From positions 124,001 to 188,000 of the forward strand of contig JAUXNX010000005.1 of assembly GCA_030682575.1 (NCBI GenBank): a DNA stretch of 64,000 nucleotides, given 5' to 3'. Positions 20,873 to 26,583 of this stretch are shown piece by piece (the first letter of the stretch is position 1; each line of letters begins with the position of its first letter). Source of the stretch: Gammaproteobacteria bacterium. Its GTDB lineage: Bacteria > Pseudomonadota > Gammaproteobacteria > Pseudomonadales > Pseudohongiellaceae. Made by a program: the position numbers and the translations under genes. The notes under the pieces are model-generated. The model saw nothing but the letters and a program-made list of their open reading frames with translations, was not told where the DNA came from and did no database searches.

Positions 20873-21667
20873 ATGTCGAGTGAAAACAAGCCAGTAAGTC
20901 CTGATTCACAAGACAAGCCCCGCACGACCCACTTCGGTTATCAGCAGGTACCAGTTGAGGAAAAAGTCAGTCGCGTAGGTCAGGTGTTCCATTCCGTGGC
21001 CAGCAAGTACGACGTGATGAACGATCTCATGTCTCTTGGCACTCACCGTCTCATCAAGCGTTTCACTGTGGAGCTGAGTGGTGTGCGTGAAGGGCAACGG
21101 GTTCTTGATCTGGCGGGCGGCACAGGTGACTTCAGCATCCGCTTCTCAGCACTGGTGGGCAAGACCGGTCAGGTAGTACTCGCAGACATCAACGACTCCA
21201 TGTTGCGGGTCGGGCGTGATCGCCTCATCGACAAGGGTATTACCAGTAATGTCTCCTACACACAGCTCAATGCCGAGAAACTGCCGTTCTCTCCCGATAC
21301 ATTCGACTGTATCTGTATCGCTTACGGTTTGCGTAATGTCACTGACAAGGATGCCGCGCTGCGCTCCATGTTCGAGGTATTGAAGCCGGGCGGTCGCGCT
21401 CTGGTACTGGAGTTCTCCAAGCCGCGCAATCCTCTGGTCGGCAAGGCCTACGACGGCTACTCGGCGCTGTGGCCGATAGTCGGCAAACTGGTCACGGGCG
21501 ATGCCGACAGTTACCGCTACCTGGTGGAGTCGATTCGCATGCACCCGGATCAGGAAGCGCTCAAAGGCATGATGGAAACTGCCGGTTTCAGCGATTGCCG
21601 CTACCACGATGTCATGGGTGGCATCTGCGCCATCCATCTGGGCTTCAAACCAATGACAAGCAACTGA
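20873..21667 (+). CDS. ubiE: Ubiquinone/menaquinone biosynthesis C-methyltransferase
   Basis: SAM-dependent methyltransferase of ubiquinone synthesis. [12 protein letters not shown] is motif [19 protein letters not shown] motif II, and [20 protein letters not shown] and [20 protein letters not shown] are UbiE/COQ5 signatures; it ends [12 protein letters not shown]. 264 residues, with a ~30-residue N-terminal extension typical of gammaproteobacteria. Followed 13 bases later by ubiJ. Confidence 0.97.
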
Positions 21668-21680
21668 CAGACGACCAGAC

Positions 21681-22319
21681 ATGAATCCCCTTCTGAGCTC
21701 AGCCATCAGCGCACCCGTGGAAGCCTTGCTCAACGCAGTGCTGGCACAGGACCCTGTGGCGGCGAAGAAACTGAGTCGCCATCAAGGCCGAGCTGTCAGT
21801 GTGGAATGTACTACCCCTCTGTCATGGCAACTATTCGTGCTGATTCAGGATGGCACGCTGGCCATCCGTTCTGTATACGAACCTGTACCCGATGCAGGCA
21901 TTTGTGGCTCCGTTGGTGCGTTCAGTCGTCTGCTGCTGAGCAGCAATCAGACTGACGCTCTCTTCTCCCCGACAATCCAGCTCAGTGGTGACACGCACCT
22001 GATTCAGGATCTGCACGCAATCCTCGCGGGTCTGGAAATCGACTGGGAAGATCACTTTGGCAATATCTTCGGCGATATCGCTACACATCAGTTAGGTCAA
22101 CTGTTCAGTCGCACACATACGTGGAGCACCGAGGCGAAGGAGACCTTGCTGAATGACATCGAGGAATACGTGCACGAAGAGGCGCGAATCTTTCCCTCGC
22201 GCAGTGAAGCCAACCACTTCAGCAACCGCGTCGATGAACTGCGGCTTGCAGTTGATCGTATGACAGCAAGACAGGAGCGTCTGTTCAGAAAACTGCAACA
22301 GATAGCTGCCAGCGTGTAA
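21681..22319 (+). CDS. ubiJ: Ubiquinone biosynthesis accessory factor UbiJ (SCP2-like)
   Basis: Lipid-binding accessory protein of the Ubi complex. An SCP2-like domain spans ~residues 15-110 (LNAVLAQDPVAAKKLSRHQG ... GICGSVGAFSRLLLSSNQ ... IQLSGDTHLIQDLHAILAGL), followed by EIDWEDHFGNIFGDIATHQL and a C-terminal coiled coil (NRVDELRLAVDRMTARQERL) matching UbiJ. 212 residues. In most relatives ubiB follows directly; here three other genes intervene. Confidence 0.93.
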   Translation: MNPLLSSAISAPVEALLNAVLAQDPVAAKKLSRHQGRAVSVECTTPLSWQLFVLIQDGTLAIRSVYEPVPDAGICGSVGAFSRLLLSSNQTDALFSPTIQLSGDTHLIQDLHAILAGLEIDWEDHFGNIFGDIATHQLGQLFSRTHTWSTEAKETLLNDIEEYVHEEARIFPSRSEANHFSNRVDELRLAVDRMTARQERLFRKLQQIAASV

Positions 22320-22390
22320 TGGATGCCGCTTCGCAGCGGTCTCCCACGCATCACAATCTGTGACAAAGTGCCGCAGCTCCCGCAAAGACC

Positions 22391-22418
22391 TTGTAATCGG
22401 CGTATAGAGTAGGATAAT
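22391..22418 (+). promoter_or_regulatory. Candidate promoter of the bufferin cassette
   Basis: TTGTAA (22391-22396), 16-base spacer, GATAAT (22413-22418), about 65 bases before the precursor ATG. It lies in the 163-base gap after ubiJ, so the cassette need not depend on ubi operon transcription. Match quality is moderate. Confidence 0.4.
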
Positions 22419-22482
22419 CGAATCAAATTTGGCCTCCGGAGCAACCCACCGATACCGGCGACCACAATCAGGAGACGACGCA

Positions 22483-23001
22483 ATGAGAACCACTGACGGC
22501 TTCAAGATGGCCTCTTCCGCTGCAGCCCTGCTGCTGGCCAGCGCCGCGATATCCTCAGGCGCAAGCGCCGCAGACGTTGCCGAGCCGGTCAAGATCAGCC
22601 AGTGTCAGGGCCTGACTTCCTGCCATGGCATGAGTGCCTGCAAAGGCTTTGGCAACGACGTCGGCGCTGGCAAGAACTCCTGCGGCGGCATTGGTTTCGT
22701 CAGCTTTGCCAGTGGTCACGCGATGGTCTCCAAGAGCTTTTGCGAGAAGCTGGGCGGCAAGGAAGTCGCTTCAGTATCTGCCGTCCCCGCTGCTGCGCCA
22801 CTTGAAGGCGTGCAGGTTGCATACTGCAACGACCTGTTCAGTTGCAACACCTTCAGTGCCTGCAAGGGCAATGGCAACGACAACTGTGCAGGCAAGAACA
22901 GTTGTCATGGCATCGGCTTTGTGGCTATTGCCACCGGGAACATGACGCTTTCCGAGCAACTGTGCAGCAAGCTCGGCGGCAACTTGATCTCCGGACTTTA
23001 A
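22483..23001 (+). CDS. Cys-rich bufferin-type RiPP precursor with two tandem modules
   Basis: 172-residue exported peptide precursor and likely substrate of the adjacent DUF692 enzyme. Residues 1-30 form a signal peptide ending ASAAD. Two homologous modules follow. Module 1 (~39-92) has C41, C47, C53, C67 and C87 with the motif SACKGFGND..AGKNSC. Module 2 (~113-166) has C115, C121, C127, C141 and C161 at identical spacing (shift of 74) plus an extra C135, with SACKGNGNDNCAGKNSCHG. Both end C(E/S)KLGG. A ~20-residue Ala/Pro/Val linker joins them. The ACKG/AGKNSC pattern resembles BufA2-type bufferin metallophores, in which cysteines are turned into thiooxazoles that bind copper; that chemistry is inferred here. 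Start chosen by AGGAG nine bases upstream. Most family members have one module. Confidence 0.85.
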   Translation: MRTTDGFKMASSAAALLLASAAISSGASAADVAEPVKISQCQGLTSCHGMSACKGFGNDVGAGKNSCGGIGFVSFASGHAMVSKSFCEKLGGKEVASVSAVPAAAPLEGVQVAYCNDLFSCNTFSACKGNGNDNCAGKNSCHGIGFVAIATGNMTLSEQLCSKLGGNLISGL

Positions 23002-23065
23002 CACACTGCCCTGTTCAGGCCTCGCTCATGACACACCGGGAGAGTGCCGGGGGAGAGAGTACGCA

Positions 23066-23920
23066 ATGCTTGGCTATGGACTGGGTCTGCGCAGTGTCCA
23101 CTACGATCATGTACTGACACACAGACCTGCAGTCGACTGGTTCGAACTCATCACTGAAAACTATCTCGCTCCAGGCGGCAGGCCGCGTGCGGTTCTGCGC
23201 GAAATCCGCGCAAACTACCCCGTTGTCCTCCATGGCCTGTCCTTCAACGTGGGCACCGATGATCCGCTTGACTTCCACTACCTCGACCAACTCAAGCGTC
23301 TGATCGCCGAGGTGCAACCAGAGTGGGTATCCGACCATCTGTGCTGGACCGGCCTGCATGGCTACACCTCCCACGACCTGTTGCCCATTGCCTATACCGA
23401 CGACAATCTGCAACGTTGCGCCGACAAGATCAGCCGCATTCAGGATTATCTTCAGCACCGTATCGTGCTGGAGAATCCTTCTGTCTACATTGGTTTTCGC
23501 TCCAATACGATGACCGAGCCAGAGTTCATCAATGCTCTGGTGCGCCAGACCGGTTGCGAGGTCCTGCTCGATATCAACAACGTGTATGTCAGTGGCTTCA
23601 ACCTGGGTTTCGACCCCCGTGCCTATATCGATACCCTTATCCCTTCTGCGATTCGACAGTTCCATCTCGCAGGCCATACCAACAACGTCACCCACATCAT
23701 CGATACACACGACCACCCGGTCTGCGACGAAGTTTGGGAATTGTACCGGCATGCCTGTCAGCGCTTCGGTCCTGTGGCCACACTGCTTGAACGGGACGAT
23801 CATATTCCCGAGTTTACAGAGCTGATGACCGAACTCGCCCACGCTCGTCAAGTCCAGGAATCAGTGACCCGCCCTGCGGAAACGATGACGACCCACGACA
23901 GTAGTGGATTGCAACCATGA
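23066..23920 (+). CDS. bufB: DUF692 multinuclear non-heme iron oxidative enzyme (BufB/MNIO-like)
   Basis: 284-residue TIM-barrel enzyme of the MbnB/TglH/BufB family, which uses two or three iron ions to modify Cys residues of peptide precursors. Candidate metal ligands and signatures: ENY (Glu31), LHG (His56), SDHLCW (Asp90, His91), LENPS (Glu136), LLDINNVYVS (Asp169), FHLAGH (His200, His204) and DTHDHPV (Asp213, His215, His217), then LLERDDHIPEF. All usual positions appear intact, so it is probably active. The substrate is presumably the two-module precursor 64 bases upstream. It overlaps the next gene by four bases (ATGA). Confidence 0.93.
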   Translation: MLGYGLGLRSVHYDHVLTHRPAVDWFELITENYLAPGGRPRAVLREIRANYPVVLHGLSFNVGTDDPLDFHYLDQLKRLIAEVQPEWVSDHLCWTGLHGYTSHDLLPIAYTDDNLQRCADKISRIQDYLQHRIVLENPSVYIGFRSNTMTEPEFINALVRQTGCEVLLDINNVYVSGFNLGFDPRAYIDTLIPSAIRQFHLAGHTNNVTHIIDTHDHPVCDEVWELYRHACQRFGPVATLLERDDHIPEFTELMTELAHARQVQESVTRPAETMTTHDSSGLQP

Positions 23921-24804
23921 ATTGGCGTCAGGAGCAGGAACAGTTCTGGAGCTGGATCAATCAGCCGCAAGATCTGGACACTCAGGCCAACGAGATTGCC
24001 AGTCTGCTCGCACCCCACAGCCATCTCTCCCAGGCCGAGGCTCTTTCTATATACAACAATGCCTATCACCAGCGACTTGTGGAGGTATCCAGCGCTCTGT
24101 TCCCGATCCTGTTCAATACTCTCGGGCGGGATATCTATACCCGCCTCTGGATCGGCTACATGGGCAAGTACCCACCCCGCAACGGCCCTATCCACCGCGT
24201 GGGAGAATTCCTGCGCGACTATGTCAGCAGCCATGAACAGTTCAGCAACCTCCCCGCCGTTGCCGATATCATCCATATGGAGGGGCTGTTGATTTCTCTG
24301 TTCGACGTGGCAGATGAGGCTGCTTATACGCTCGCTGAATTGCAATCCCTGCCAGCAGAAAAATGGCCAGCGATGCGGTGGCAGGCGAAACAGGACTGGG
24401 CTCTCCTGGAAAGTCGTTTCAATCTGGAGAAGTACTGGCAGCAGATGCATGGATTCATGGCCTCGGGAGGAGAGCCTGGGGAGGCGGAGTTCGGAATTGA
24501 ATTGGTCAAGAGGCCTGAGGATGAGGGGACAATCATTCGCGAGCAAAACCCACTCTTGCAGAGAAGATATCCGAGCAATCTGATCTACCGTAAGCGGCAC
24601 AGGATGCAGTTTCAGCCCATTGCTGCAGATATGGCGCTGTTTCTTCAGGCCGTGCGGGAAGGCGAGACTTTCGCGCAGATTTGTGAGCATCTGGCCGCTG
24701 CTTTTCCTATGCAGGATATTCCTCAACTGAGCCTCAACCTGTTATTCAAGGCTATCGAACTGGGACTGCTCTGCAGCTCCAACGATCGGGTTAATGCCAA
24801 CTAA
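23917..24804 (+). CDS. bufC: DUF2063 MNIO partner protein (BufC-like)
   Basis: 295-residue partner that recruits precursor peptides to DUF692 enzymes. The N-terminal DUF2063 domain (~5-100) shows LSIYNNAYHQRLVEVSSALF, and VLF-type segments through LRDYVSSHEQFSNLPAVADI. The C-terminal half (~105-290) contains IHMEGLLISLFDVADE, LVKRPEDEG and a winged-helix-like end (GETFAQICEHLAAAFP ... LNLLFKAIELGLL). Translationally coupled to the DUF692 gene. No metal-binding or transmembrane feature is evident. Function is inferred from the family and from gene order. Confidence 0.88.
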   Translation: MNWRQEQEQFWSWINQPQDLDTQANEIASLLAPHSHLSQAEALSIYNNAYHQRLVEVSSALFPILFNTLGRDIYTRLWIGYMGKYPPRNGPIHRVGEFLRDYVSSHEQFSNLPAVADIIHMEGLLISLFDVADEAAYTLAELQSLPAEKWPAMRWQAKQDWALLESRFNLEKYWQQMHGFMASGGEPGEAEFGIELVKRPEDEGTIIREQNPLLQRRYPSNLIYRKRHRMQFQPIAADMALFLQAVREGETFAQICEHLAAAFPMQDIPQLSLNLLFKAIELGLLCSSNDRVNAN

Positions 24805-24942
24805 CGCCTCCCCTTGCAGCCCTTGTCGCCATCCACGCTTAGTGCTATCTTTGCCAGCCCTTGCGAAGGCAAATGTAAACGCCTGATATTTCAACAAATA
24901 CTCACACAGCACACCCCCGGCAGCATGTTGAAGGCTTAATTC

Positions 24943-26583
24943 GTGTCCCATCTTCCCCGACTACTGACACTACTCAACACTGCCGCCCGCTACGGCCTCG
25001 ATCAGGTGTCGCCTCAGGTACAACCCTCTGGCGTAGTCGGAGCGCTGTTCAAGCTCTGGAGCCTGCCATGGCGCCTGCACCCTTCACGCCGCCTCGCACC
25101 GGAAGTGCGTCTGCGCATGGCGCTGGAAGAACTTGGACCGATCTACATCAAATTCGGTCAACTGCTTTCCACTCGCAGAGATTTTCTGCCGCTCGAACTT
25201 GCCGATGAATTGCAGTCACTGCAGGACAACGTGCCCGGTTTCAGCGATCCCCCCATTCAGTTTCTGGTCGAGCAGGCATTGGCTCGCCCCTGGCAGGAAG
25301 TGTTCAGCGAGCTGAATACCGAGGCATTGGCTTCCGCATCGGTCGCGCAGGTCCACGCTGCACGCCTGCTCACTGGCGAAGAAGTCGTCGTCAAGGTGAT
25401 CCGGCCCGGCATCGAAAAGACCATCGTGGAAGACATCAAGCTGCTGAAGTGGATAGCCGGACTGGTGGAAGAACACATTCCCGAAGGCCGCAGACTGAGA
25501 CCTCGCGAGGTAGTAAGCGATTACGAGAAGATCATTCTCGACGAACTCAACCTGCTCTCTGAAGGCGCCAATGCCACCCAGTTACGCCGCAATTTCGAGC
25601 ACTCGCCGCAGCTCTATGTGCCCCGAGTCTACTGGGAATACTCACGCAGCAACCTGTTGGTGATGGAGCGCATTTATGGCACCCCAGTGGCCGACATCAA
25701 CAGTCTGCGCGCCCAGGGCGTGAATCTGAAGAAACTGGCGGAAACCGGTGTGGAGATCTTCTTTACTCAGGTGTTCAACCACAGTTTCTTCCACGCCGAC
25801 ATGCATCCCGGCAACATCTTTGTAGCGAAGCACAGTCCGGAGAACCCCCAGTACATCGCCATCGACTGCGCCATCATCGGCTCGTTGAGCAAAAGCGATC
25901 AGCAGTATCTGGCCCGCAATCTGTTGGCCATCTTCCAGCGCGACTACCGCAAGGTGGCTCAGTTGCACGTGGAATGTGGCTGGGTGCCAAAGGATACCCG
26001 CGTGCATGAATTCGAGGCTGCGATGCGCTCGGTATGTGAGCCTGTATTCGAGAAACCCCTGAAGGACATTTCTTTCGGCTATCTGCTCGTGCAATTGTTC
26101 CGCACAGCGGGTCGTTTCAACATGGAGGTCCAGCCTTCGCTGGTGCTGCTGCAGAAAACCCTGCTCAATGTCGAAGGGCTGGGCAGGCAGCTCTACCCTG
26201 AGCTGGACCTGTGGACGACAGCCCTGCCCTTCCTGGAAGACTGGAACCGTCGGCGCATGCGCCCGTCCACTCTCTTCAACGCACTGAAGGAAAATGTGCC
26301 AGACTGGATCGAGCAACTGCCTTACCTGCCGCAACTGATGATCGACTCATTGACACAGTCAAAACAGCTTACCGCCATCAACGAGACACTGCAGCAGCGC
26401 CTGCTGGAAGAACAGATACAGCATCACAAGCGCCGCAGGCGATCCATACAGGGTGGACTGGCACTTCTCGCAGTTGCCATTATTGCGTTCTTGCCAGGGG
26501 GCGAATCACTGGCCTCAGAACTCTCGCTGTCAGGCCTCCTGCTGGGCGCAGCGGCGGTTTACCTTTTGTGTTTTAACCGCTGA
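24943..26583 (+). CDS. ubiB: Ubiquinone biosynthesis ADCK-family kinase-like protein UbiB
   Basis: Atypical kinase-like ATPase required for ubiquinone synthesis. The family KxGQ motif is at Lys70-Gln73 (YIKFGQLLSTRRDFLP); SASVAQVHAARL is the Ala-rich nucleotide loop, EVVVKVIRPGIEKTI carries the Lys, and FFHADMHPGNIF and IAIDCAIIGSLS are the catalytic/metal loops. In the last, the usual Asp-Phe-Gly is Asp-Cys-Ala. Two C-terminal membrane helices (~ALLAVAIIAFLPG and LSLSGLLLGAAAVYLLCF). GTG start at 24943, 138 bases after the cassette; no strong ribosome site. 546 residues. Confidence 0.96.
   Translation: MSHLPRLLTLLNTAARYGLDQVSPQVQPSGVVGALFKLWSLPWRLHPSRRLAPEVRLRMALEELGPIYIKFGQLLSTRRDFLPLELADELQSLQDNVPGFSDPPIQFLVEQALARPWQEVFSELNTEALASASVAQVHAARLLTGEEVVVKVIRPGIEKTIVEDIKLLKWIAGLVEEHIPEGRRLRPREVVSDYEKIILDELNLLSEGANATQLRRNFEHSPQLYVPRVYWEYSRSNLLVMERIYGTPVADINSLRAQGVNLKKLAETGVEIFFTQVFNHSFFHADMHPGNIFVAKHSPENPQYIAIDCAIIGSLSKSDQQYLARNLLAIFQRDYRKVAQLHVECGWVPKDTRVHEFEAAMRSVCEPVFEKPLKDISFGYLLVQLFRTAGRFNMEVQPSLVLLQKTLLNVEGLGRQLYPELDLWTTALPFLEDWNRRRMRPSTLFNALKENVPDWIEQLPYLPQLMIDSLTQSKQLTAINETLQQRLLEEQIQHHKRRRRSIQGGLALLAVAIIAFLPGGESLASELSLSGLLLGAAAVYLLCFNR

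What the first reader, a model, noticed from the sequence alone, without database searches (positions are those of the whole stretch)
22320..24942. Bufferin-type RiPP cassette inserted between ubiJ and ubiB
In many gammaproteobacteria ubiE, ubiJ and ubiB are adjacent. Here a Cys-rich precursor, a DUF692 enzyme and a DUF2063 partner sit exactly between ubiJ and ubiB, with their own candidate promoter at 22391-22418 and a 138-base gap before ubiB. DUF692/DUF2063 pairs modify exported Cys-rich peptides, and the known bufferins protect against copper. The insertion point inside a respiratory quinone operon is unusual and may link metal defence to respiration, or may simply be a neutral acquisition.
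Basis: partly seen in the sequence, partly recalled or inferred. Interest (0 to 1): 0.85.

Follow-up and report, generated by a model that had tools for sequence, protein, structure and literature searches.

The report
Tandem bufferin wired to copper-uptake operator
A three-gene cassette for a copper-binding modified peptide sits in a quinone-gene neighbourhood by descent from a common ancestor, and its promoter carries the same DNA switch as this family's copper-uptake genes but not its copper-export genes, which suggests that it may help bacteria take up or hold copper rather than only protect them from excess copper.

Summary
In detail: ubiE-ubiJ-[bufA-bufB-bufC]-ubiB at the stated coordinates, with a 138-nt gap before ubiB. 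BufB is an MNIO bufferin maturase (NCBIfam cutoff met) and BufC a DUF2063 partner. BufA is a tandem two-module Buf2-type precursor (5+6 Cys; 54.9 bits against a cutoff of 60). The position is clade-fixed: ubiJ-bufABC occurs in every readable genome of three genera, ubiE and BufB trees broadly agree, and sister genera have ubiJ directly against ubiB. bufA and ubiB each have a conserved promoter of their own, and in one genus ubiB lies elsewhere, so a functional link to quinone synthesis is not supported. New: immediately upstream of the bufA promoter is a conserved inverted repeat, TGYGNCA-N3-TGNCRCA. The same box precedes all 10 TonB copper receptors found in the family (6 exact, 4 degenerate), MbnP (3 exact of 4), and several CopC, a Csp1 and MbnH-like genes. 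It precedes 0 of 30 CopA export ATPases and 0 of 74 bufferin clusters outside the clade. The box occurs in genera lacking bufABC, so the cassette was probably recruited into an older copper-uptake regulon. The regulator, the sign of regulation and the chemistry remain untested.

The parts
22359..22375 (+). operator box TGTGACA-AAG-TGCCGCA (clade consensus TGYGNCA-N3-TGNCRCA)
   Evidence: conserved upstream of bufA in g1, g5 and g6 with arms that change together (G034 TGCGTCA-ATT-TGACGCA, G046 TGCGACA-AAA-TGTCGCA); same box upstream of copper-uptake genes
22391..22418 (+). bufA promoter: -35 TTGTAA, 16-nt spacer, -10 GATAAT
   Evidence: 16-nt spacer in all 23 loci scored; box-to--35 gap is 4-5 nt or exactly 15 nt (about one helical turn)
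22483..23001 (+). bufA: exported tandem Buf2-type precursor, N-module Cys 41/47/53/67/87, C-module Cys 115/121/127/135/141/161
   Evidence: NF050166 BufA2 E 7.7e-15, 54.9 bits (cutoff 60), two stretches; alignment of 23 relatives
23066..23920 (+). bufB: MNIO (DUF692) bufferin maturase
   Evidence: NF050167 355 bits, cutoff 310; PF05114 348.9 bits; aligns with 3BWW over H56, H91, E136/N137, D169, H200, H215, E242
23917..24804 (+). bufC: DUF2063 partner protein (PME type 1 by family)
   Evidence: PF09836 38.5 bits, cutoff 27.2; ATGA overlap with bufB
24823..24851 (+). conserved promoter-like block of ubiB (TTGTCG-17-TATCTT)
   Evidence: conserved in all 12 g1/g5 genomes aligned while the flanks diverge; no experimental support
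20873..22319 (+). ubiE and ubiJ, the upstream neighbours by descent
24943..26583 (+). ubiB, the downstream neighbour
   Evidence: NF003404 715.8 bits

Best explanation
This is a Buf2-type bufferin (captophorin) cassette. BufB-BufC would convert inner-loop cysteines of the two-module BufA precursor to 5-thiooxazoles before Sec export, giving a periplasmic copper chelator; the outer Cys pair of each module probably forms a structural disulfide. The cassette entered the ubiJ-ubiB junction once in an ancestor of three genera and has been inherited there since; its quinone neighbours are incidental. It is transcribed from its own promoter under a palindromic operator, placed like an activator site just upstream of the -35, that it shares with TonB copper receptors, MbnP/MbnH, CopC and Csp1-type genes and not with CopA exporters. 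So the cassette belongs to the copper-uptake and periplasmic copper-handling regulon of this family, and most likely buffers or holds copper while importers are on. Shown by sequence: gene content, fixed position, broadly matching trees, operator sharing and its absence from CopA. Inferred: the chemistry, disulfides, activator role, and the direction (copper limitation).
For: Families. Position and descent. Box at bufA: (found in every g1, g5 and g6 promoter aligned). Genome-wide exact box: about 49 sites against 7 for the reversed control in 21 genomes; variant form 25 against 1 in 9 genomes. TonB copper receptor TIGR01778: all 10 in the family carry it, 6 exact, 2 with one mismatch, 2 with tandem two-mismatch copies; G028, G038 and G039 came from the box scan, the other seven are independent. 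MbnP TIGR04052: 3 of 4 exact. CopC, Csp1, MbnH-like downstream of the box. CopA TIGR01511: 0 of 30 with up to 1 mismatch in 1.5 kb, six with CueR-like sites. Outside clade: 0 of 74 bufferin loci; background 2 exact hits in 804 kb. Published: TonB copper transporters bfrG and oprC are down-regulated by copper, and CopC, MbnPH and AhpC/TSA genes keep company with such operons (PMC9426467; PMC7558416).
Against: No expression data. The regulator is not identified. Csp proteins are reported as up-regulated at high copper (PMC7558416), so the regulon need not be a pure starvation response; P. aeruginosa OprC is also described as induced at low Cu(II) through CueR. Known bufferins protect against excess copper (PMC12452194). 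Some box sites lie next to genes with no clear copper role. BufA is below the BufA2 curated cutoff. In the own genome, copper assignment of the two other box genes rests on family resemblance (TonB receptor 160 bits to TIGR01778, cutoff 472; MauG/MbnH-like).
Confidence: 0.62

Rival explanations
1. Ordinary copper-defence bufferin: the shared operator marks a general copper-responsive regulator that turns on bufABC in excess copper, and acts differently at importer genes.
For: Known bufferins enhance growth in excess copper (PMC12452194); a Csp1-type gene also carries the box; a dual regulator is possible.
Against: 0 of 30 CopA exporters carry the box and some carry CueR-like sites; the box has a similar position, at or just upstream of the -35, at bufA and at the receptors.
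Confidence: 0.28
2. Functional link to respiration: insertion in the ubi operon co-expresses the bufferin with quinone synthesis.
For: Adjacency kept in three genera; no clear terminator between ubiJ and bufA, so read-through is possible; an unrelated bufABC lies upstream of ubiE in G242.
Against: Separate conserved promoters; ubiB elsewhere in genus g6; 0 of 74 bufferin loci outside the family lie near ubi genes.
Confidence: 0.07
3. The box belongs to a broader respiratory or redox regulator (Crp/Fnr or ArsR type) rather than to a copper sensor; copper genes are part of that regulon.
For: MauG/CCP-like and c-type cytochromes are in the set; a Crp/Fnr gene in the own genome and an ArsR-type gene in G038, G039 and G042 lie divergent to a box-bearing MauG gene.
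Against: All 10 copper receptors and all 4 MbnP genes carry full or degenerate boxes; the 7-3-7 spacing does not match the even-spaced Crp or Fnr sites (own knowledge).
Confidence: 0.2

Closest known systems
Buf2 (Buf_6/12Cys) bufferins, Antoine et al. 2025 PMC12452194
   Same: bufA-bufB-bufC order, signal-peptide-like N-terminus, MNIO maturase plus DUF2063 partner; duplicated 12-Cys precursors already described
   Different: 11 Cys here; across the clade the first module lost its inner Cys loop at least four times on the tree but kept its two outer cysteines; no doxX next to it; operator shared with copper-uptake genes
Captophorins (fontiphorin, oxazolin, gonophorin), PMC12668002
   Same: MNIO plus PME1 pair; expected 5-thiooxazole and copper binding
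   Different: no EGKCG repeats; modification not tested here
Copper-regulated TonB operons (bfrG/cruR in Bordetella, oprC/nosA in Pseudomonas), PMC9426467 and PMC7558416
   Same: overlapping gene set: TonB copper receptor, CopC, MbnPH, AhpC/TSA
   Different: here linked by a DNA palindrome at promoters and including a bufferin cassette; the cruR mechanism is a post-transcriptional uORF
Methanobactin clusters (MbnB, MbnPH, MbnT)
   Same: MNIO-made copper chelator alongside MbnPH and TonB receptor genes; methanobactin serves acquisition
   Different: BufB matches MbnB far below cutoff (82.7 against 325); precursor has a signal-peptide-like N-terminus; the copper genes here are not clustered with bufABC

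Membership tests
Bufferin (Buf2) cluster | MNIO maturase of the BufB family | tested here: met
   NF050167 355 bits, cutoff 310
Bufferin (Buf2) cluster | Buf2/BufA2-type precursor by profile | tested here: inconclusive
   NF050166 E 7.7e-15 with two stretches, but 54.9 bits is below the cutoff of 60
Bufferin (Buf2) cluster | 6 or 12 conserved Cys in one or two modules | tested here: inconclusive
   two modules with 5 and 6 Cys; relatives 6-11 in all
Bufferin (Buf2) cluster | DUF2063 partner gene after the MNIO gene (bufABC order) | tested here: met
   PF09836 above gathering score, gene order
Bufferin (Buf2) cluster | Sec signal peptide on the precursor | tested here: inconclusive
   hydrophobic N-terminus then ASA/AD by eye; a helix at residues 3-25 in a low-confidence model; no signal-peptide program run
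Bufferin / captophorin | Cys-derived 5-thiooxazole and copper binding | not testable with these tools
   needs expression and mass spectrometry
Copper-uptake operator regulon of this family | 7-3-7 palindrome at or just upstream of the -35 | tested here: met
   22359-22375; all 23 loci scored within one mismatch
Copper-uptake operator regulon of this family | same box at copper receptor and MbnP genes, absent from CopA | tested here: met
Copper-uptake operator regulon of this family | response to copper through an identified regulator | not testable with these tools
   regulator not found; only divergent Crp/Fnr and ArsR-type neighbours seen

The most novel reading that the evidence does not exclude
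In this clade a bufferin is made as part of copper acquisition: it is expressed together with TonB copper importers in copper limitation and captures or hands on incoming copper in the periplasm, a methanobactin-like role for a peptide class known for copper protection, reached by recruiting the cassette into an older copper-uptake regulon.
Probability: 0.42. Interest if true: 0.82.

Novelty: new variant of a known kind. Interest (0 to 1): 0.62.

Why it matters
Bufferins and relatives number in the tens of thousands and are described as protection against excess copper. A clade in which the cassette shares its operator with copper importers, and not with the exporter, would show that the same chemistry can serve supply as well as defence, and gives a direct test: does bufA rise or fall when copper is removed? 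The repeated loss of only the inner Cys loop of one module, with the outer pair kept, is also a natural test of which cysteines are modified and which hold the fold.

Tried and rejected
Link to quinone synthesis: rejected as above. Recent horizontal insertion: not supported, BufB and UbiE trees both separate the own genus from g6, with the single g5 genome not firmly placed; nearest outside relatives about 53% identical. BufA2 as a Pfam family: no Pfam hit. Looser first box pattern with one mismatch in the own genome gave 17 hits against 10 for the control, mostly chance. Own-genome site C8:91852 lies between convergent genes and is more likely a terminator hairpin. AlphaFold of BufA gave mean pLDDT 53, too low to use beyond a rough strand-helix-strand repeat, so no fold search was run. 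BufC found no relative among solved structures by sequence. Literature searches found no published regulator for this box.

Full report
What is there. The window holds hslU-DUF971-ubiE-ubiJ-bufA-bufB-bufC-ubiB-hisI on the plus strand. BufB passes the NCBIfam cutoff for the MNIO bufferin maturase and aligns with the solved DUF692 protein 3BWW over the expected metal-site residues; that those residues are ligands is recalled, not tested. BufC carries DUF2063 above cutoff. BufA has two stretches matching the BufA2 model, 54.9 bits in all against a cutoff of 60: two tandem modules with 5 and 6 cysteines. Duplicated 12-Cys Buf2 precursors are already described (PMC12452194).

Position. In 137 genomes of the family, BufB relatives at 65-100% identity occur in 13 of 14 genomes of the own genus g1, the single genome of g5 and 15 of 15 of g6; elsewhere there are only three distant hits. 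In every g1 and g5 locus read the order is ubiJ-bufABC-ubiB as far as the contig allows; in 12 of 12 g6 loci read ubiJ-bufABC is kept but ubiB-hisI lies elsewhere. Seven loci from g3, g4 and g8 have ubiJ about 100-190 nt from ubiB with nothing between. In a g2 genome other genes fill that junction. Quick trees of BufB and UbiE both separate g1 from g6; the g5 genome is loosely placed and inner branching of g1 differs in part, so the agreement is broad but not full. Outside the family, 0 of 74 related bufferin loci lie near ubi genes; one order-level genome, G242, has a different tandem bufABC upstream of ubiE.

Two promoters. The ubiJ-bufA spacer diverges except for a block made of a palindrome, a TTGTAA/T -35 and a GATAAT -10. 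The -35/-10 spacer is 16 nt in all 23 loci scored, and the palindrome lies 4-5 nt upstream of the -35 in 20 and exactly 15 nt in 3; two more loci, read from the alignment, also have 15. A shift of about one helical turn is what an activator on one face of DNA would tolerate; this is inference. The bufC-ubiB spacer has its own conserved promoter-like block. I take the two as separate transcription units, though read-through was not tested.

The box. Exact TGYGWCA-N3-TGWCRCA sites number about 49 against 7 for the reversed control in 21 genomes; a variant form gives 25 against 1 in 9 genomes. Genes roughly 20-130 nt downstream include TonB receptors in two groups of seven, MauG/MbnH-like di-haem proteins, CopC, a CopC fused to DJ-1, MbnP, a Csp1 copper storage protein, cytochromes and redoxins. 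Not every site has a copper gene next to it.

Tests of the box. TIGR01778 copper receptors: 5 in the 26 genomes of g1, g5 and g6, then 10 in the whole family. All 10 carry it: 6 exact (G028, G038, G039, G040, G086, G127), 2 with one mismatch (G001, G093), 2 with tandem two-mismatch copies (G019, G077). G028, G038 and G039 came from the box scan; the other seven were found by protein family alone. G001, G077, G086, G093 and G127 belong to genera without this cassette, so the operator is probably older than the cassette. MbnP: 3 of 4 exact, the fourth a half site. CopA export ATPases: 0 of 30 even with one mismatch in 1.5 kb upstream, six with CueR-like sites. Bufferin loci outside the clade: 0 of 74. 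Background: 2 exact sites in 804 kb. The pattern used in these last tests was widened after seeing the first sites, so the counts are not blind, but the controls used the same pattern.

Reading. TonB copper transporters are down-regulated by copper in Bordetella and Pseudomonas, and CopC, MbnPH and AhpC/TSA genes accompany such operons (PMC9426467; PMC7558416). By that analogy the box regulon is the copper-uptake side, which makes a supply role for this bufferin likely but unproven; Csp1 and known bufferin function pull the other way. The regulator is unknown; a Crp/Fnr gene in the own genome and an ArsR-type gene in three relatives lie next to box-bearing MauG genes.

Own genome. Besides bufA, box sites precede a TonB receptor (C24:334626; 160 bits to TIGR01778, below cutoff) and a MauG-like gene (C32:237099). 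A true TIGR01778 receptor was not found in it.

Precursor evolution. In eight genomes the first module has lost the inner Cys loop yet keeps the two outer cysteines; at least four changes on the BufB tree. This fits an outer disulfide and inner modified cysteines. The AlphaFold model is too poor to add to it.

Noticed in passing
L102 (G242:C3:40000-52000, minus strand): A different tandem 12-Cys bufABC lies directly upstream of ubiE-ubiJ-ubiB-hisI in another family, with a LuxR-like gene upstream: a second bufferin-ubi neighbourhood on the other side.
   Followed up: partly
L111:3348-6585 (G004): The ubiJ-ubiB junction of a g2 genome holds other genes (a beta-lactamase-family hydrolase and a glycosyltransferase-like ORF by eye), so the junction accepts inserts.
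   Followed up: no
window 22483-23001 and relatives (alignment A5): First BufA module repeatedly lost its inner Cys loop while the outer Cys pair stayed.
   Followed up: yes
L288 (G000:C24:332100-337100): Own-genome box-bearing TonB receptor sits next to ORFs that look like pqqC and pqqE by sequence.
   Followed up: no
L239:2645-2977, L281:2639-2977, L249:2586-3266: ArsR-type (BigR-like, below cutoff) and Crp/Fnr-type regulators lie divergent to box-bearing MauG genes; candidate regulators.
   Followed up: partly
L280:1348-3449: Box-bearing MbnP gene followed by a 383-aa ORF that looks like MbnH.
   Followed up: no
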